From positions 310,001 through 374,000 of the forward strand of contig NZ_JAFIDC010000001.1 in the NCBI RefSeq assembly GCF_017052655.1: 64,000 nt of DNA. The letters are read 5' to 3'. How positions within the stretch are numbered: position 1 is the stretch's first letter; each line of letters opens with the position of its first letter. Made by a program: the position numbers and the translations under genes. A model generated the notes under the pieces. That model made no database searches. It saw only the letters and a list, made by a program, of their open reading frames with translations, and was not told the DNA's origin. This stretch comes from Acholeplasma equirhinis (lineage in GTDB: Bacteria > Bacillota_I > Bacilli_A > Acholeplasmatales > Acholeplasmataceae). Of the stretch, positions 44,955 to 59,594 are shown in pieces.

Positions 44955-46601
44955 ATGCTTTCGAAATTACTGGTTAAAAATTTCGCATTAATTGATGATT
45001 TAGAGATTGAATTTAAAAATGGACTCACTGCACTTACAGGAGAAACTGGAAGTGGTAAGTCCATTCTTTTAGAATCTTTATCGCTTTTATTTGGTAAAAG
45101 AAGTGATGCTGAATACATCAGACACGGAAAATCAAAAGCTGAAGTCACAGGTCAATTTTTATTAAACCAAGTTCAACAAAAAGCTTTAGAATTACCTGAA
45201 GAAATTACATTGCATCGTGAAATTGATGAGTCAGGTCGACACACCATTCGTTTAAATGGTGAAATTATCACACTTGCCAGACTTAAATCAATTACATCCT
45301 TAATTGGGTTAATACATGGACAAAATGATACATATATGTTGTTTGATAAAGCGTCTTATGTTACCTTTATCGACCAAATGGATTTAAATAAAGCAACAGA
45401 TCTATTGCAAAAGTACTTAATTAAAAGAAGTAAATATCAAGAAGCAAAAGCGCACCTTGAATCTTTAAAATCTAAAAAGCAAGAAAGTTTAGAACGTATT
45501 GATTATTTAACTTTCCAAGTAAAAGAACTAGAAGGATTAAATCTACTTCTAAACGAAAAAGAAGAACTTGAAGATAAAATCGAAAAATTAAAAAACTTTG
45601 ACCTTATTCAATCTGCTTTAAAACAAGCAAATGAAGCTTTAAATAGTCAAACTTTTCAATTAGATGACCTATATCTTGCATATAAACAAATCGCTAAAAT
45701 TGCTGAGTATGATAAATCATATGAAATGTTATCTAAGAATCTTGAAGATTCATATTATACATTAGAAGATTCGATTAAAACTAGTTCTAACCTATTAAAG
45801 AATTTAGATTTTGATGATGAAGCATTTAATATGTATCAACAAAGAGTATTTGAATTGAATAAAATCGAAGTTAAATATGGTAAAACAGTCAATGATTTGA
45901 TTGAGTATTTAGATAAAATTAAAGAAGAACTTGCGTTATCAAGCGATTATGAAGGTTACTTGAAAGAAGTTAAACAAAAATGCGATAAGTTATATGATGA
46001 AGCTTATCAAGATGCAACTAAACTTCATGAGTTACGTTTAAAGCTTGCTAAACGCTTAGAAGATGATTTAACGAAAAACCTTCGTGAACTCGATTTAGAA
46101 AAAGCAGAATTTAAAATTGAATTTGATGAAATTAAACATGGTATGACTTTAGACGAAACTGGTGTCGATGCTGTTGAGTTTATGATTTCACTCAATGAAG
46201 GTGAACCTAAGAAACCTTTAAGTAAGGTAGCATCTGGTGGTGAAAAAGCTCGATTTATGTTTAGTCTAAAATCACTCTTTGCCAAAAACTCAGGATTATC
46301 TATGTTAGTATTTGACGAAATTGACATCGGTATTTCGGGGAAAACTGCAGCGAAAGTTGCAACTAAGATGAAGGAAATCTCAACAGAACTTCAAACACTA
46401 GTTATCACGCATTTACCACAAGTTGCTGCAAAAGCAGATTATCATTATTCAATTTATAAAACTAAAGTGGATGATCGCATGCAAACCTTCATTGAACTAC
46501 TTTCACAAGACGATAGAGTACTTTCAATTGCAGGTATGTTAAGTGATGATTCAATTTCACCTTACGCAATAGAACAAGCAAAAGCATTATTATCAAAATA
46601 G
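44955..46601 (+). CDS. recN: DNA repair protein RecN
   Basis: 548 residues. SMC-like ATPase with Walker A LTGETGSGKSILLESL, two coiled-coil arms (about 150-360), signature SKVASGGEKARFMFSL and Walker B MLVFDEIDIGISGKTA. It handles double-strand breaks. One base after tlyA. The stop codon overlaps the terminator stem. Confidence 0.94.
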   Translation: MLSKLLVKNFALIDDLEIEFKNGLTALTGETGSGKSILLESLSLLFGKRSDAEYIRHGKSKAEVTGQFLLNQVQQKALELPEEITLHREIDESGRHTIRLNGEIITLARLKSITSLIGLIHGQNDTYMLFDKASYVTFIDQMDLNKATDLLQKYLIKRSKYQEAKAHLESLKSKKQESLERIDYLTFQVKELEGLNLLLNEKEELEDKIEKLKNFDLIQSALKQANEALNSQTFQLDDLYLAYKQIAKIAEYDKSYEMLSKNLEDSYYTLEDSIKTSSNLLKNLDFDDEAFNMYQQRVFELNKIEVKYGKTVNDLIEYLDKIKEELALSSDYEGYLKEVKQKCDKLYDEAYQDATKLHELRLKLAKRLEDDLTKNLRELDLEKAEFKIEFDEIKHGMTLDETGVDAVEFMISLNEGEPKKPLSKVASGGEKARFMFSLKSLFAKNSGLSMLVFDEIDIGISGKTAAKVATKMKEISTELQTLVITHLPQVAAKADYHYSIYKTKVDDRMQTFIELLSQDDRVLSIAGMLSDDSISPYAIEQAKALLSK

Positions 46602-46706: not shown

Positions 46707-47561
46707 ATGATACATTATAAAAATGCAGTAGAATTATCAAATGAGCAAATCATTAAAGGATTTAATAGAGGTTTTATTGATTACATAATCAAGCTCACTT
46801 TAGACGAAGAAAAATATTTAAAACATTTTATGGGACTTGAAGGTAATCAACCTGAGAATTCTTTTGTTGCTTTTGATGATGAAGAACCTATCGGTGTGAT
46901 TTTTGGTGGGTTAAAACAGTATGAAGGAAAGAAAGTACTTCGTTGTGGTGCTTTAAGTGTTGCACCAGAATATAGAAAACTTGGTGTTGCATCTAAGCTT
47001 TTTGAACTGCATAAAGAAAAAGCGATTGAACTGGGTTGTGATGAACTTTATTTAGAAGTAATTTCAGGTAATGTAAAAGCAATCAATTTTTATTTCAAGA
47101 ATGGGTATAAGATTTTATCAGATTTAAACTACTATCAATTAGATTCAACTTCAAAACTCAAAGAACTTGACTTAACTCAATATGATATCAAAGAACTGAG
47201 TTTAGACTCAGTTAGAGAGATTCATGAAAATGAGGCTAAAACACATATGAACTGGCAAGGTGAATTTGATTACATTAGTAAATTTCCAGTATTAAAATCA
47301 TTTGGTTTATATGAAGATGGAAAACTTGCAAGTGTCATTTCAACCTTACCTTCTGGTAGATTATTCTATCTATATACGAAAGAAGAAATGAGAAGAAAAG
47401 GTTATGTAAAAGCATTACTTGCATATGTTACAAAAACATTTAATTTAGAAAGAATGAGTATTGCATTTCCATATAATGAAAGTTTGAAGGATCTACTTAC
47501 ATCGCTTTCTTTCATTAAATCAGCGATTCAACAATATGATATGGTTTTTAAATTAGAGTAA
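46707..47561 (+). CDS. GNAT acetyltransferase with two domains
   Basis: 284 residues. The N-terminal GNAT domain has the acetyl-CoA loop VAPEYRKLGVASKLFELHKEKA and GNVKAINFYFKNGYK. The C-terminal half has a second, weaker GNAT-like pattern (YTKEEMRRKGYVKALLAYVTK). Own ribosome site AGAGG and own terminator. The acetylated substrate cannot be inferred. Confidence 0.85.
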   Translation: MIHYKNAVELSNEQIIKGFNRGFIDYIIKLTLDEEKYLKHFMGLEGNQPENSFVAFDDEEPIGVIFGGLKQYEGKKVLRCGALSVAPEYRKLGVASKLFELHKEKAIELGCDELYLEVISGNVKAINFYFKNGYKILSDLNYYQLDSTSKLKELDLTQYDIKELSLDSVREIHENEAKTHMNWQGEFDYISKFPVLKSFGLYEDGKLASVISTLPSGRLFYLYTKEEMRRKGYVKALLAYVTKTFNLERMSIAFPYNESLKDLLTSLSFIKSAIQQYDMVFKLE

Positions 47562-47562
47562 G

Positions 47563-47587
47563 AAGATGTATTTAATACATCTTTTTT
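47563..47587 (+). terminator. Terminator after the acetyltransferase
   Basis: AAGATGTAT (47563-47571) and ATACATCTT (47575-47583) followed by TTTT. Confidence 0.8.
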
Positions 47588-47611
47588 ATGAGAAATTTAA
47601 TGATTAAGTGA

Positions 47612-47676
47612 ATGAAAACATTATCATGAAAATATTTACATGAAAACTTTCATTTTCTTTCATAGTATGTTATAAT
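47612..47676 (+). promoter_or_regulatory. Phased ATGAAAA repeats and promoter of the 27-codon gene
   Basis: ATGAAAA occurs at 47612, 47626 and 47640, exactly 14 bp apart, followed by inverted TTTCAT at 47648 and 47658, 10 bp apart. The -10 TATAAT is at 47671-47676; there is no good -35, as expected for an activated promoter. The array looks like an operator for a regulator binding cooperatively. Confidence 0.6.
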
Positions 47677-47788
47677 GTATTTACCTAAAAGGGATAGGTA
47701 CTTAAAAATTCGATCGGTTTTAAGAAATTATCTTGAGTAAGGGAGAGTCTTTTTGACTCTATATATGTTTTAATAGGAGGTATGCGTT
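47677..47788 (+). ncRNA. Structured leader of the 27-codon gene
   Basis: Three hairpins: TACCT/AGGTA near 47681-47700, CTTAAAA/TTTTAAG near 47701-47725, and AGAGTC-TTTTT-GACTCT near 47745-47761, then ribosome site AGGAGG. No known riboswitch consensus was recognised. Confidence 0.45.
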
Positions 47789-47872
47789 ATGGAAAAACGT
47801 CAAAAGAAAAGCATCTTAAAATTGCTTGGTGATATGTTGCTTACAGCATTTTTGATGGTACAAGGTAACTAA
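47789..47872 (+). CDS. 27-residue amphipathic peptide
   Basis: Starts at ATG 47789, 6 bases after AGGAGG, a strong ribosome site. The peptide has a basic start (EKRQKKSILKLL) and a hydrophobic end (GDMLLTAFLMVQGN), as in small membrane-active peptides. It is the only coding sequence between its promoter and terminator. Candidates: type I toxin-like peptide, small membrane regulator or secreted signal. No antisense RNA promoter was recognised. Confidence 0.55.
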   Translation: MEKRQKKSILKLLGDMLLTAFLMVQGN

Positions 47873-47910
47873 CACATGAATACAATTGAATGTAGTTATC
47901 CAAAATAAAA

Positions 47911-47948
47911 AATGAACTTTAGAATTAAGCTCTAGAGTTCATTTTTTT
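47911..47948 (+). terminator. Terminator of the 27-codon unit
   Basis: AATGAACT (47911-47918) and AGTTCATT (47936-47943), with inner TAGA/TCTA, followed by a T-run. It faces the convergent 60-residue gene. Confidence 0.85.
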
Positions 47949-47968: not shown

Positions 47969-48148
47969 TTACTTAAAGAAATCGTAAATAGCGATACCTG
48001 CACCAATTAAGATGACTGCGATTGTACCGAAAAGAATAATACCTACAACGATTTTTCCCCAAATAGATTCAGTTGGATCGGTGAAAACATCATATGATTT
48101 TTTTTCAGTTTTTTGTACCGGTTTTTTAGAAGTTTGTTTTTTTGCCAT
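47969..48148 (-). CDS. Small single-TM protein
   Basis: 59 residues from ATG 48148 (GGAG 8 bp upstream; ATG 48154 and GTG 48157 are alternatives). A Lys/Gln-rich N-terminus (AKKQTSKKPVQKTEKKSYDVF) is followed by one membrane helix (WGKIVVGIILFGTIAVILIGAGIAIYDFF, residues about 31-58). It resembles small DUF4044-type proteins of Gram-positives, but that match is weak. Confidence 0.6.
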   Translation of the reverse strand: MAKKQTSKKPVQKTEKKSYDVFTDPTESIWGKIVVGIILFGTIAVILIGAGIAIYDFFK

Positions 48149-48216
48149 TTTCATCACTCCAAATTTTTTCGACTGTAAATATTATACTATATAATAGAGT
48201 TTAAAGGAAGATAAAC

Positions 48217-49320
48217 ATGCAAAAAAAAGTTAAAATCATTTTCCATATAGATATGAATGCATTTTATGCATCATGTGCAATGATTAAAGAACCTTATTTA
48301 AAGCATAAGGTCTTTGTTGTTGGAGGTCAATTATCATCAAATCGTGGTGTGATTTCAACTGCATCTTATAAAGCTAGAAAACTAGGTATTAAGGCTGCTA
48401 TGGGTCTTGCTGAAGCTTTAAAGATCTATCCTAGACTTTTAGTTGTTCCAACGGATTTTAATCTATACCGAGAAAAATCTGAATTATTTATGAATTTACT
48501 TTCTGAATATAGTAATTTAATGTTACCAGCATCGATAGATGAGGCATATTTAGATGTCACTGAGTTAGTAGAAACACGTCATCCTTTAGAAATTGCAAAA
48601 GAAATTCAAACAAGACTTTATAAAGATCATCAATTACCATGCAGTATAGGTATTGCACCGACACTCTTTTTAGCTAAAATGGCAAGTGATTTAAAAAAAC
48701 CATTAGGTATTACAGTGCTTCGTAAAAGAGATGTTAAAAAAATATTATATCCTTTAGATGTGGCAGATATTCATGGGATTGGTAAACAGACGTATCCAAA
48801 ACTACATAAACTAGGGATACAAACGATTGGTGATTTCATGAATCCGGATAATTACTCAAAAATATTAACAGTCATGAAACCAGAAACGTATCAGGTACAT
48901 AGAAGTGATGTATTAGGTGAAAGTTCTAATATCATTGAACCAGAAAAATATAGTATCCCAAAATCAATTTCAAGTGAAAATACATTTAATTATGATGTTT
49001 TAGAATCAAGTGTCATTTTAAATGAAATATTTAATCAATTAAAAGAATGCGTTAGACGTTTAAATAAACATGAAATGTATGCGAAAACTGTATCGATAAA
49101 ACTAAAAAAAGCAAAAGATTTCAGTTTAATAACGAGGTCTTTAACTTTAGATGACTACACGGATGATTTTATATTATTTAAAGATAAAATTGAGACTTTA
49201 TTTGAAACACATTTTGATGGTGATCCAGTTAGACTTGCTGGTGCAGGTTTAAGTAACTTATTACTTAAGAAGGATAGAAAGATTCCATACAATCTTTTCA
49301 CATATCAGAAATTCATGTAG
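48217..49320 (+). CDS. dinB: DNA polymerase IV (Y family)
   Basis: 367 residues. Metal-binding FHIDMNAFYASCAM and the second acidic motif ASIDEAYLDVTE; helix-hairpin-helix IHGIGKQTYPKLHKLGI. Translesion polymerase without proofreading. RBS AAGGAAG. Followed by a helicase gene 33 bp on. Confidence 0.94.
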   Translation: MQKKVKIIFHIDMNAFYASCAMIKEPYLKHKVFVVGGQLSSNRGVISTASYKARKLGIKAAMGLAEALKIYPRLLVVPTDFNLYREKSELFMNLLSEYSNLMLPASIDEAYLDVTELVETRHPLEIAKEIQTRLYKDHQLPCSIGIAPTLFLAKMASDLKKPLGITVLRKRDVKKILYPLDVADIHGIGKQTYPKLHKLGIQTIGDFMNPDNYSKILTVMKPETYQVHRSDVLGESSNIIEPEKYSIPKSISSENTFNYDVLESSVILNEIFNQLKECVRRLNKHEMYAKTVSIKLKKAKDFSLITRSLTLDDYTDDFILFKDKIETLFETHFDGDPVRLAGAGLSNLLLKKDRKIPYNLFTYQKFM

Positions 49321-52228: not shown

Positions 52229-54805
52229 TTATTTTTTAATTTTTAAGAATTGTGCATTAATACTTACAACAATTGTTGAAAGACTCATTAAAATTGCACC
52301 AACTGCAGGGGAAATAACAAATCCTGTAAATGCCAGTACACCAGCAGCAAGCGGTAATGTAAGAACATTATACGCAAGTGCCCAAATTAAGTTTTCAACC
52401 ATTTTACGATACGTAGATTTTGATAACTCAATTAAGTTAAGAACATCTTTTGGTTCTGATCTTACAAGAATAATATCCGCAGTATTTATTGCAACATCTG
52501 TTCCCGCACCGATTGCAATACCTAAATCAGATTTAGCAAGCGCAGGTGCATCATTGATACCATCACCTGTCATCATGATAAATGATCCGGGTTGTTTAAT
52601 TGAATCAATATATGCACTCTTTTCGTGTGGTAACATTGAATGTTTGAAAGTTGTGATACCAAGTTCATTTGCAACTTTTTCTGCAACAGATTTATTATCA
52701 CCGGTTAACATATGTGTACGAATACCAAGTGCATTAAGCTTTTTAATCGCATCTATTGCTGATGGTTTAATTTGATCTTGTAGAGTGATTAATCCAAGGA
52801 CTTTTTGATCTTCTATAACATATACAAGCGTTTGTCCTTTATCAACAAGCTCTTGATGTAGTTTTTGATCATATTTAATGTTTTCTTTATCAAGATAAGC
52901 AACAGAAACTGCACCAGAGTTTAAACCATTAATCGTTGCAGTTACACCATAACCGGGTAAGTTTTTGTAATTAGCAACTTTAAGGTTAGATTCATTAATT
53001 TGTGAATAAGCAAGTATACCTTTGGCAATTGGATGTGTTGATGGTTTTTCAAGTACATATGCTAAATCTAGTACATATTCAATATCTTTTGAAATAGCAT
53101 AAACATTTGTTACTGAGAATTTACCATCTGTTAATGTACCAGTTTTATCAAAGATTACATCTGTAACTTTTCGTGCATTTTCAAATTGACTGCGATTTTT
53201 AATAAGTAAACCATTTTTAGCTGCAAGTGTTGTTGAAATTGATGTTACAAGTGGAATTGCAACCCCTAGTGCATGTGGACATGCAATAACAATAACAGTA
53301 ACTACTTTTTCTAGAATAAATTCTTGAGATTCACCGACAAGACCCCATGCTAACCAAGTAAGAAGTGCGACTGTAATTGAAACATAGAATAAATATTTAG
53401 CAGCGATATCAGCAAGACGTTGAGTTTTTGATTTATTACCTAATGAATCATTGACAAGTTTAACAACTTGAGAAAGATAAGTTTCTTCACCAAGTTTAGA
53501 AATTTTAACTTCAAGTAAACCATCTCCATTAATTGTTCCACCAATCACTTGATCATTAATTGTTTTAACGACTGGATTTGATTCACCCGTAACCATGGAT
53601 TCATCAATAGCAGATTCACCTTTTACAATGTCACCATCAACCGGTACTTTTTCACCTGGTTTAACTAAAACAATTTGATGTTTTTTAAGTTCGGATAATG
53701 GAACATCTTTTGTTTCATTATCGTTAATAATTAAATGCGCTTCACTTGGTAAAAGTTTAGTAAGTGATTGAAGTGCATCTGAAGCAACCATACTTGATTT
53801 CATTTCTAGGAAGTGACCAAGTAACATAATATCAATTAAAGTTACAAGTTCCCAATAAAAATCCATACCACTTAAACCGAATGTAACTAAAACTGAATAT
53901 ACATAAGAAATTGTAATACTTAATGCAACAAGTGACATCATTGCAGGTTCTTTAGCTTTTAATTCATAATATGATGCACTAAAGAATGGCCAACCACCAT
54001 ATGCAAATATAGCAGTTGCAAAAATTAAAACGACATACTCTTGATATTGGAAAGTAATTGAGTAGTTTAACCAATTTTGAATCATTGGTGATAAAAGAAG
54101 AACCGGGATTGAAAGAATTGAAGAAACTACAAATCTAATTAAATAATCTTTAATATGCGCAGAATGATCATGTCCGCCATGTCCATGATGTCCATGATGA
54201 CTGTGATCGTGATGAGAATGATTATGATGTGAATGATTATGTGTATGATGGTGATGGCTATGATCCTCTCCATCGTGATTGCAACTTTTTTCACTGTCTA
54301 AACAACCACAATTACATTCAGATTTCCTTTCGCCTTTACAACCAGGACATGTACAAACTTTTTCTTCTTGGTTGGCTTCATGTTCGCATTTACCGCAACA
54401 TTCATGATTTTCTTCATGATGATGTTCATGGTGTGAATGTTGGTGTTCATCATGGCTACAACTCTTATCTCCAGTTAAGCAACCACAAGTACATGAATCC
54501 GTTCCTTCACCCTTACAACCAGGGCAGGTACAAACTTTTTTTTCTGCTTCATGATGATGTTCGTGTTTTTCATCTAAACAATCACATTCACAAGTAGAAG
54601 TTCCTGCATCTTCACAGCCGAGACAAGTACATACTTTTTTAGTTTCTTTATGGTGATTTTCATGATTACATGAAACATTACCTTCTAAGCAACCACAACT
54701 ACAGTTTTCAGTGCCTTCACCTTTACAACCAGGACAAGTACAAACTTTCTTTTCATCTGAACCATGATTGTGGTCATGATGTTTAAATACATATATTTTT
54801 TTCAT
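52229..54805 (-). CDS. copB: Copper-exporting P-type ATPase of the CopB type with a Cys/His-rich N-terminus
   Basis: 858 residues. P1B ATPase core: six to eight helices, metal site CPH in IVIACPHALGVAIPL (CPH marks CopB-type P1B-3), actuator loop GESNP, phosphorylation Asp in FDKTGTLTDG, hinge TGDGINDAPALAKSD. Residues 1-220 are unusual: four copies of a motif beginning CTCPGCKG and ending CxCGCL (about 21-40, 58-77, 91-110 and 150-169), interleaved with His clusters and followed by a 40-residue His run. There is no ordinary HMA domain. It probably exports Cu, with the N-terminus buffering or sensing metal. It lies 9 bp downstream of csoR. Confidence 0.92.
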   Translation of the reverse strand: MKKIYVFKHHDHNHGSDEKKVCTCPGCKGEGTENCSCGCLEGNVSCNHENHHKETKKVCTCLGCEDAGTSTCECDCLDEKHEHHHEAEKKVCTCPGCKGEGTDSCTCGCLTGDKSCSHDEHQHSHHEHHHEENHECCGKCEHEANQEEKVCTCPGCKGERKSECNCGCLDSEKSCNHDGEDHSHHHHTHNHSHHNHSHHDHSHHGHHGHGGHDHSAHIKDYLIRFVVSSILSIPVLLLSPMIQNWLNYSITFQYQEYVVLIFATAIFAYGGWPFFSASYYELKAKEPAMMSLVALSITISYVYSVLVTFGLSGMDFYWELVTLIDIMLLGHFLEMKSSMVASDALQSLTKLLPSEAHLIINDNETKDVPLSELKKHQIVLVKPGEKVPVDGDIVKGESAIDESMVTGESNPVVKTINDQVIGGTINGDGLLEVKISKLGEETYLSQVVKLVNDSLGNKSKTQRLADIAAKYLFYVSITVALLTWLAWGLVGESQEFILEKVVTVIVIACPHALGVAIPLVTSISTTLAAKNGLLIKNRSQFENARKVTDVIFDKTGTLTDGKFSVTNVYAISKDIEYVLDLAYVLEKPSTHPIAKGILAYSQINESNLKVANYKNLPGYGVTATINGLNSGAVSVAYLDKENIKYDQKLHQELVDKGQTLVYVIEDQKVLGLITLQDQIKPSAIDAIKKLNALGIRTHMLTGDNKSVAEKVANELGITTFKHSMLPHEKSAYIDSIKQPGSFIMMTGDGINDAPALAKSDLGIAIGAGTDVAINTADIILVRSEPKDVLNLIELSKSTYRKMVENLIWALAYNVLTLPLAAGVLAFTGFVISPAVGAILMSLSTIVVSINAQFLKIKK
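54145..54805 (-). repeat. Four Cys-rich repeats and His clusters in the ATPase N-terminus
   Basis: Each unit of about 20 residues has Cys at spacings CxCxxC then CxCxC, the second unit diverging (CLGC, CDCL). Spacing between units is 37, 33 and 59 residues. Between them HHDHNH- and HHEHHH-type clusters occur. The clusters encode metal-binding ligands at very high density. Confidence 0.85.
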
Positions 54806-59354: not shown

Positions 59355-59495
59355 ATGATTAAAAGATTTAAAATGTTTGATAGTGAAGCAATGAGGATGG
59401 GCGTAAGGGAATTTAAGGCATATTATTGTCCAAATTGTATGAAAATAATCTTAAATGTTTCAAAGATATTGAATAAAGGCAAAAAAGATTTATAA
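59355..59495 (+). CDS. Possible 46-residue Cys-pair peptide or gene remnant
   Basis: ATG 59355 to TAA 59495 reads IKRFKMFDSEAMRMGVREF followed by KAYYCPNCMKIILNV. The CPNC half of a zinc ribbon is present but the second Cys pair is missing. The ribosome site is weak (AAGTG). It ends inside the riboswitch promoter. It may be a degraded zinc-ribbon gene. Confidence 0.3.
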   Translation: MIKRFKMFDSEAMRMGVREFKAYYCPNCMKIILNVSKILNKGKKDL

Positions 59496-59594
59496 TAATT
59501 AAAGGGAATGATGTTCTCCCTTGTAGAAATCTACAAAACCGCAAACAAATTTGCTGATGACGTCTAACTCTTTTTGAGTTAGGCGTTTTATTTT
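59469..59594 (+). promoter_or_regulatory. Fluoride riboswitch (crcB motif) with promoter and terminator
   Basis: TTGAAT (59469) and TATAAT (59491-59496) precede the aptamer at about 59501-59565. Seen in order: GGGAATG-ATGTTC-TCCC, an extra hairpin TTGTAGA/TCTACAA, AACCGC, stem GCAAA/TTTGC, and GCTGATGACGTCTAAC. These match the conserved crcB elements. The 3' side overlaps a terminator: ACGTCTAACTC (59560-59570) with GAGTTAGGCGT (59576-59586), one G-U pair, then TTTATTTT. Fluoride binding should prevent the terminator and switch on the antiporter at 59612. Confidence 0.88.

What the first reader, a model, noticed from the sequence alone, without database searches (positions are those of the whole stretch)
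47612..47948. Regulated transcription unit encoding only a 27-residue peptide
Three ATGAAAA sites exactly 14 bp apart and two inverted TTTCAT sites precede a TATAAT; a leader with three hairpins, AGGAGG, a 27-codon amphipathic ORF and a strong terminator follow. So much control for so small a product suggests a membrane-active peptide, a toxin, or a regulatory RNA for which the ORF is a passenger.
Basis: partly seen in the sequence, partly recalled or inferred. Interest (0 to 1): 0.58.

Follow-up and report, generated by a model that had tools for sequence, protein, structure and literature searches.

The report
Conserved 27-residue peptide gene, acholeplasma
A tiny stand-alone gene for a 27-residue, probably membrane-binding peptide is kept in three related acholeplasma-like bacteria, and its switch carries the same kind of DNA signal as the switch of the carbon-control gene ccpA; what the peptide does is still unknown.

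Summary
Three ATGAAAA sites lie exactly 14 bp apart (47612, 47626, 47640), two TTTCAT sites (47648, 47658) precede TATAAT (47671), AGGAGG precedes a 27-codon ORF (47789-47872), and terminators stand on both sides. Two of seven other genus members keep the peptide at the same place, recN - peptide - TM protein - dinB (27 and 26 aa); four lack it there, one contig is cut. A search of 160 genomes of the order finds only these three convincing copies. Peptide similarity far exceeds shuffles (0/2000 in each pair) and changes are fewest at codon position 2. The leader fold is ordinary (z -1.1) and not shared by the third species, so the product is the peptide, not an RNA. The operator array resembles one conserved upstream of ccpA in 8 of 8 genus genomes; a half-site model trained on ccpA alone (spacings set after seeing the peptide promoters) scores all three peptide promoters above 1000 of 1000 shuffles and makes the window's own the best of 639 100-mers. 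Most likely: a cationic, hydrophobic membrane peptide under a ccpA-linked regulator. Regulator identity and peptide function are inferred; toxin and pheromone readings remain open.

The parts
47562..47588 (+). Terminator hairpin of the upstream GNAT gene; insulates the peptide unit
   Evidence: Sequence; hairpin of 10 pairs then T-run. recN terminators stand at the matching place in G001 and G007 (sequences, read by eye).
47612..47627 (+). Operator-like dyad 1, ATGAAAACATTATCAT
   Evidence: one mismatch to ATGAAA-N4-TTTCAT.
47626..47641 (+). Operator-like dyad 2, ATGAAAATATTTACAT
   Evidence: one mismatch to ATGAAA-N4-TTTCAT.
47640..47663 (+). Core three-half-site operator ATGAAA-N2-TTTCAT-N4-TTTCAT, of the type found in the ccpA promoters
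   Evidence: score 29.3 under a ccpA-trained model, 0/1000 shuffles reach it; next best of the 639 window 100-mers scores 14.3.
47648..47653 (+). Position of the -35 hexamer (TTTCAT, poor match), overlapped by the operator
   Evidence: 17 nt from the -10; read. Inference.
47671..47676 (+). -10 box TATAAT, with TG upstream (TATGTTATAAT)
47683..47788 (+). Leader (5' UTR); start inferred about 7 nt after the -10
   Evidence: Fold z -1.08; not alignable with the G007 leader (220/500 shuffles as good), partly alignable with G001 (2/500).
47775..47780 (+). Ribosome-binding site AGGAGG, 8 nt before ATG
47789..47872 (+). 27-codon ORF MEKRQKKSILKLLGDMLLTAFLMVQGN
   Evidence: syntenic orthologs in G001 and G007.
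47907..47947 (+). Intrinsic terminator, inverted repeat of 17 pairs; could serve both strands
   Evidence: z -5.7; equivalents in G001 (z -7.0) and G007 (z -4.1).

Best explanation
This is a real monocistronic gene for a 27-residue cationic, hydrophobic peptide. Shown by sequence comparison: the encoded peptide, with intact start, stop and the pattern LG-x2-[FL]L-x2-FL-x4-N, is what is conserved, not the leader RNA. Shown as sequence, function inferred: its promoter is overlapped by an array of TTWCAT half-sites of the kind found upstream of ccpA in every genus genome held, so the two probably share a transcription factor. Inferred: because the array covers the -35 region and the spacer here, while it lies further upstream at ccpA, the factor probably acts differently on the two, most simply repressing the peptide gene. 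Inferred: the peptide stays in the cell, binds or crosses the membrane with its K-rich N-terminus inside, and modulates a membrane protein (a transporter, kinase or protease) under the condition sensed by that factor, as other regulated small membrane proteins do.
For: Synteny recN-peptide-TM protein-dinB in three genomes (with a GNAT gene between recN and peptide in the window), found by single-sequence search (G001, 44% identity, E 0.083) and by scanning the stretch before dinB (G001 and G007, same place, ribosome site, 27 and 26 aa). Pairwise peptide scores 7.7 to 9.0 sd above shuffles, 0/2000 each. Differences at codon positions 1/2/3 are 11/7/17 of 27, 12/6/17 of 26 and 11/7/13 of 26; pN 0.30-0.39 against pS 0.71-0.85. 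Terminators conserved in all three. Operator: ccpA array in 8 of 8; 0/1000 shuffles for each of three peptide promoters; top of 639 100-mers; the only other exact ATGAAAA-N7-ATGAAAA in the genome is upstream of ccpA. Net charge +3 in all three. No known RNA family here.
Against: Only 3 of 160 genomes in the order carry a convincing copy, so the function is dispensable. The ccpA model's spacings (2-5 and 3-6) were set after seeing the peptide promoters. Outside the ccpA and peptide sites the genus pattern shows no excess over its reversed control (14 further matches against 13). The hydrophobic moment is not above shuffles in two of three orthologs. dS is saturated, so the selection estimate is rough. 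The G000 and G001 leaders share some similarity (2/500). No transcript or peptide has been seen here, and no binder of the array is known.
Confidence: 0.45

Rival explanations
1. Secreted signalling peptide: a short precursor with K-rich N-region and hydrophobic core whose last 7-8 residues (VFLQNERN, VFLLHERN, AFLMVQGN) are released as a pheromone for a cytoplasmic RNPP/Rgg-type receptor.
For: Layout resembles short streptococcal and enterococcal precursors (recalled). The same genome has an HTH regulator with a weak TPR hint beside a 58-aa putative precursor (L003; HTH_3 E 0.0012, below its cut-off).
Against: No regulator beside the peptide. The hydrophobic stretch itself is conserved, unusual for a mere signal sequence; the last residues differ in the window copy.
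Confidence: 0.2
2. Membrane-damaging peptide: a type I toxin or a modulin-like secreted lytic peptide, kept silent by the operator array.
For: Small, cationic, hydrophobic in all three; tight-looking control; patchy distribution.
Against: Only weak minus-strand promoter candidates for an antisense RNA (9 of 12 at 47988, with the terminator between it and the ORF, and 8 of 12 at 47756); no immunity, antitoxin or exporter gene beside it; orthologous position rather than mobile spread.
Confidence: 0.2
3. Regulatory RNA with the ORF as passenger.
For: Leader with predicted hairpins; some leader similarity between G000 and G001 (2/500).
Against: Leader fold ordinary in G000 and G001 (z -1.08 and -0.83), absent in G007 (z +0.83); ORF conserved by codon position; no Rfam match.
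Confidence: 0.05
4. Chance ORF in a leader, or a decayed gene.
For: Very short; only three genomes.
Against: Same start, stop, near-identical length and conserved residues at the same place in three species.
Confidence: 0.05

Closest known systems
Regulated small membrane proteins of bacteria (for example MgrB, SgrT, MntS; recalled as a kind)
   Same: Very short ORF with its own regulated promoter and terminator, charged end, hydrophobic core.
   Different: No sequence relation found; partner unknown; shorter than MgrB (recalled).
Phenol-soluble modulins (recalled)
   Same: Hydrophobic peptide of 20-27 residues without an obvious cleavage site.
   Different: Amphipathicity not significant in two of three orthologs; no dedicated exporter beside it.
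SHP/PapR-type pheromone precursors (recalled)
   Same: Short K-rich, hydrophobic precursor-like layout.
   Different: No adjacent Rgg/PlcR-type gene; conserved hydrophobic core.
CcpA regulon of Acholeplasma laidlawii (PMC5138195: outline, found passages and section 15 seen)
   Same: The paper gives CcpA (ACL_RS05870) a regulon of three operons for carbohydrate transport and metabolism.
   Different: The half-site dyads here lack the central CG of a cre site (consensus recalled) and at ccpA they stand beside the cre-like site, so CcpA itself is probably not the binder.

Membership tests
Type I toxin-antitoxin | Small hydrophobic toxin ORF | tested here: met
   27 aa, hydrophobic core.
Type I toxin-antitoxin | Overlapping or adjacent antisense RNA with its own promoter | tested here: inconclusive
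   Only weak minus-strand promoter candidates (9 of 12 at 47988, 8 of 12 at 47756); no RNA data.
Type I toxin-antitoxin | Toxic on expression | not testable with these tools
   Needs an expression test.
Phenol-soluble modulin | Strongly amphipathic helix | tested here: inconclusive
   P 0.02 in the window peptide, 0.21 and 0.11 in the orthologs.
Phenol-soluble modulin | Exported by a dedicated ABC transporter | not tested
   No transporter directly beside it; genome not searched for one.
RNPP/Rgg pheromone | Receptor gene adjacent | tested here: not met
   Neighbours are a GNAT gene, a small TM protein and dinB.
Structured regulatory RNA | Conserved RNA fold in homologs | tested here: not met
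   folds ordinary in G000 and G001, none in G007; no Rfam family.
SOS-induced small protein | LexA box in the promoter | tested here: not met
   No GAAC-N4-GTTC in 47600-47690, read by eye; motif recalled. Considered because the neighbours recN and dinB are SOS genes in other bacteria.
Operator type of the ccpA promoters | ATGWAA-N2..4-TTWCAT-N4..6-TTWCAT (G001: CTGAAA as first half-site) | tested here: met
   8 of 8 ccpA promoters; three of three peptide promoters; spacings allowed were set after seeing them.

The most novel reading that the evidence does not exclude
The peptide is the feedback arm, or the secreted signal, of an undescribed regulon of acholeplasmas that also governs ccpA: a membrane or extracellular peptide that tells a minimal wall-less cell about its carbon or redox state by acting on the sensor that controls ccpA.
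Probability: 0.17. Interest if true: 0.65.

Novelty: new member of a known kind. Interest (0 to 1): 0.4.

Why it matters
Genes this short are usually missed by annotation. A selected, regulated 27-residue peptide in reduced, wall-less bacteria, tied by its operator to the master carbon regulator's own promoter, would give a concrete entry to an unmapped layer of control in acholeplasmas and a defined motif with which to trace the regulator.

Tried and rejected
Phage and plasmid records: no match; viral contigs: 158 pattern matches, none confirmed. PDB by profile: no match. Pfam and NCBIfam: nothing for the peptide. The weak family-wide peptide hits that I read (L071, L073, L082) are not orthologs by size, place or start; the other weak hits were not read one by one. 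The remaining blast hit elsewhere in the own genome (C1:697926) is an AT-rich promoter-like stretch upstream of a NUDIX-like gene and was dropped; the other (C1:357907, minus strand) is the terminator's own inverted repeat.

The palindrome TTTTCATGAAAA alone is a poor guide: 47 sites per strand against 23 for the reversed control with one mismatch, several of those read lying inside genes. A ZIP-transporter-like gene carries ATGAAAATTTTCAT in this genome only, not in the seven relatives, so it was not counted as a regulon member. A first look at the ccpA and ZIP promoters used the wrong side for minus-strand matches and was redone. I first took TATAAC behind the arrays of the 60-aa gene and the lipoprotein gene as their -10; the longer sequence shows that the likely promoter lies further downstream, so that reading was dropped.

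The genome-contig scan with DinB gave 47 named loci, none close (50% identity at best), and was used only for the name of the order. Structure prediction was not run: the peptide is below the tool's 30-residue limit. Paper searches listed nothing on this peptide or operator; only the two papers named in the report were opened.

Full report
Setting. The window is bases 310001-374000 of contig 1 of a 1.45 Mb genome in 7 contigs. By gene content, genome size, standard code and the names of more distant DinB relatives (Acholeplasmatales, Anaeroplasma, Haloplasma) I take it to be an acholeplasma; no call names the species. The unit lies between a GNAT gene (46707-47561, Pfam Acetyltransf_1 E 2.8e-21), itself downstream of a recN-like gene (44955-46601), and a convergent small gene (47969-48157, minus strand) followed by dinB (48217-49320) (the names recN, dinB and, below, ccpA are recalled from the sequences).

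Observation. The equally spaced ATGAAAA triple is unique in the window and is not expected by chance (0.07 expected even with three mismatches). In the whole genome the exact pair at 14-bp spacing occurs at this promoter twice and once elsewhere, upstream of ccpA. The final terminator is strong. The leader hairpins are predicted but are no stronger than in shuffled sequence.

Homologs. A single-sequence search of 101 genomes gave a weak hit in G001 (E 0.083, 44% identity) which turned out to lie in the same place: recN, peptide, convergent TM protein, dinB. Scanning the stretch before dinB in the 30 loci held, out of 51 genomes with a dinB match among 88 searched, found the peptide also in G007. 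In four genus members (G002, G003, G005, G006) recN is followed directly by the TM protein with no peptide; in G004 the contig begins too late to tell. A profile of the three peptides (its own members match by construction) searched in 160 genomes of the order gave the three plus one weak match (G033, E 0.0035, residues 2-20) that is not a similar ORF. The CcpA tree puts the three carriers together with weak support (74/82, midpoint root) and the DinB tree does not resolve them, so one gain or one loss is possible and not shown.

What is under selection. The peptides are MEKRQKKSILKLLGDMLLTAFLMVQGN, MEKKKKASFLSRLGELFLAVFLQNERN and MNKSRKNVFYYLGQMFLTVFLLHERN; M1, K3, K6, L13, G14, L18, F21, L22 and N27 are invariant. 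Alignment scores are 7.7-9.0 sd above shuffles, 0 of 2000 in each pair. Changes are fewest at codon position 2 and most at position 3. Leaders differ: 106, 134 and 70 nt as taken; G000-G001 retain some similarity (2 of 500 shuffles as good), G000-G007 none (220 of 500), G001-G007 marginal (34 of 500). The G007 leader has no fold to speak of (z +0.83). The peptide, not the RNA, is therefore the conserved product. In all three the unit is flanked by terminators (upstream ones read by eye).

Promoter. The triple resolves into two dyads of 16 bp (ATGAAA-N4-TATCAT and ATGAAA-N4-TTACAT) overlapping by two bases, and a core ATGAAA-N2-TTTCAT-N4-TTTCAT. The ccpA promoter of all eight genus genomes held carries ATGAAA-N3/4-TTWCAT-N4-TTWCAT, upstream of a cre-like site and the -10. 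A half-site model built from the eight ccpA arrays alone scored the best site of each peptide promoter at 29.3, 23.2 and 26.3; none of 1000 dinucleotide shuffles of each reached this, and the next best of the 639 window 100-mers scored 14.3. Two cautions. The allowed spacings were set after seeing the peptide promoters. And a looser genus-wide pattern gave 25 matches against 13 for its reversed control, of which 8 are ccpA and 3 lie in the peptide promoters, so the other 14 show no excess as a group. Among those, a 60-aa protein gene (G000, G001) and a lipoprotein gene (G002, G003, G005) recur with similar arrays well upstream of the start codon and deserve a look. At the peptide gene the array overlaps the -35 region and the spacer; at ccpA it lies upstream of the -35. 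This suggests repression of the first and perhaps activation of the second by one factor, which is inference. The binder is unknown; CcpA itself is unlikely because the half-site dyads lack the CG centre of a cre site (recalled).

Function. The peptide is cationic (+3 in all three) with a hydrophobic core and modest amphipathicity. I rank a membrane-associated regulator first, then a pheromone and a toxin or modulin; the evidence does not separate these well. A published promoter map of A. laidlawii (PMC5138195; outline, found passages and section 15 read) reports 53 conserved transcription factors with 34 predicted binding sites, and a CcpA regulon of three carbohydrate operons; its supplementary site tables could not be opened here, so whether this operator is among its predictions is not known. 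In the A. oculi genome paper (PMC4221730; six terms looked for) I found nothing on this locus. My paper searches listed nothing on this peptide.

Noticed in passing
47969-48157 (minus strand): Small single-TM protein gene beside dinB; a relative is found in 49 of 88 family genomes, with a conserved WGK motif before the TM stretch. Only weak, sub-threshold CrgA-like matches in Pfam for a relative (E 0.0046).
   Followed up: partly
L179-L186, upstream of ccpA: Conserved half-site array plus a cre-like TTGTAAGCRCTTCCAT-type site in the ccpA promoter of all 8 genus genomes, suggesting autoregulation and a second regulator.
   Followed up: yes
L003:1802-2990: A 58-aa putative peptide precursor (minus strand) divergent from a 334-aa HTH regulator with a weak TPR hint; resembles an RNPP-type peptide/receptor pair.
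   Followed up: partly
L203, L213, L204, L214, L215: A 60-aa protein gene (G000, G001) and a lipoprotein gene (G002, G003, G005) share an upstream stretch with TTTCAC/TTWCAT half-sites followed by TTATAACTTTCTTTG.
   Followed up: partly
52229-54805 (minus strand): P-type ATPase-like protein with an N-terminal run of repeated KVCTCPGCKGEGT...CGCL Cys motifs and His-rich stretches.
   Followed up: no
59495-59573: Fluoride riboswitch (Rfam RF01734, 43.3 bits); gene behind it not examined.
   Followed up: no
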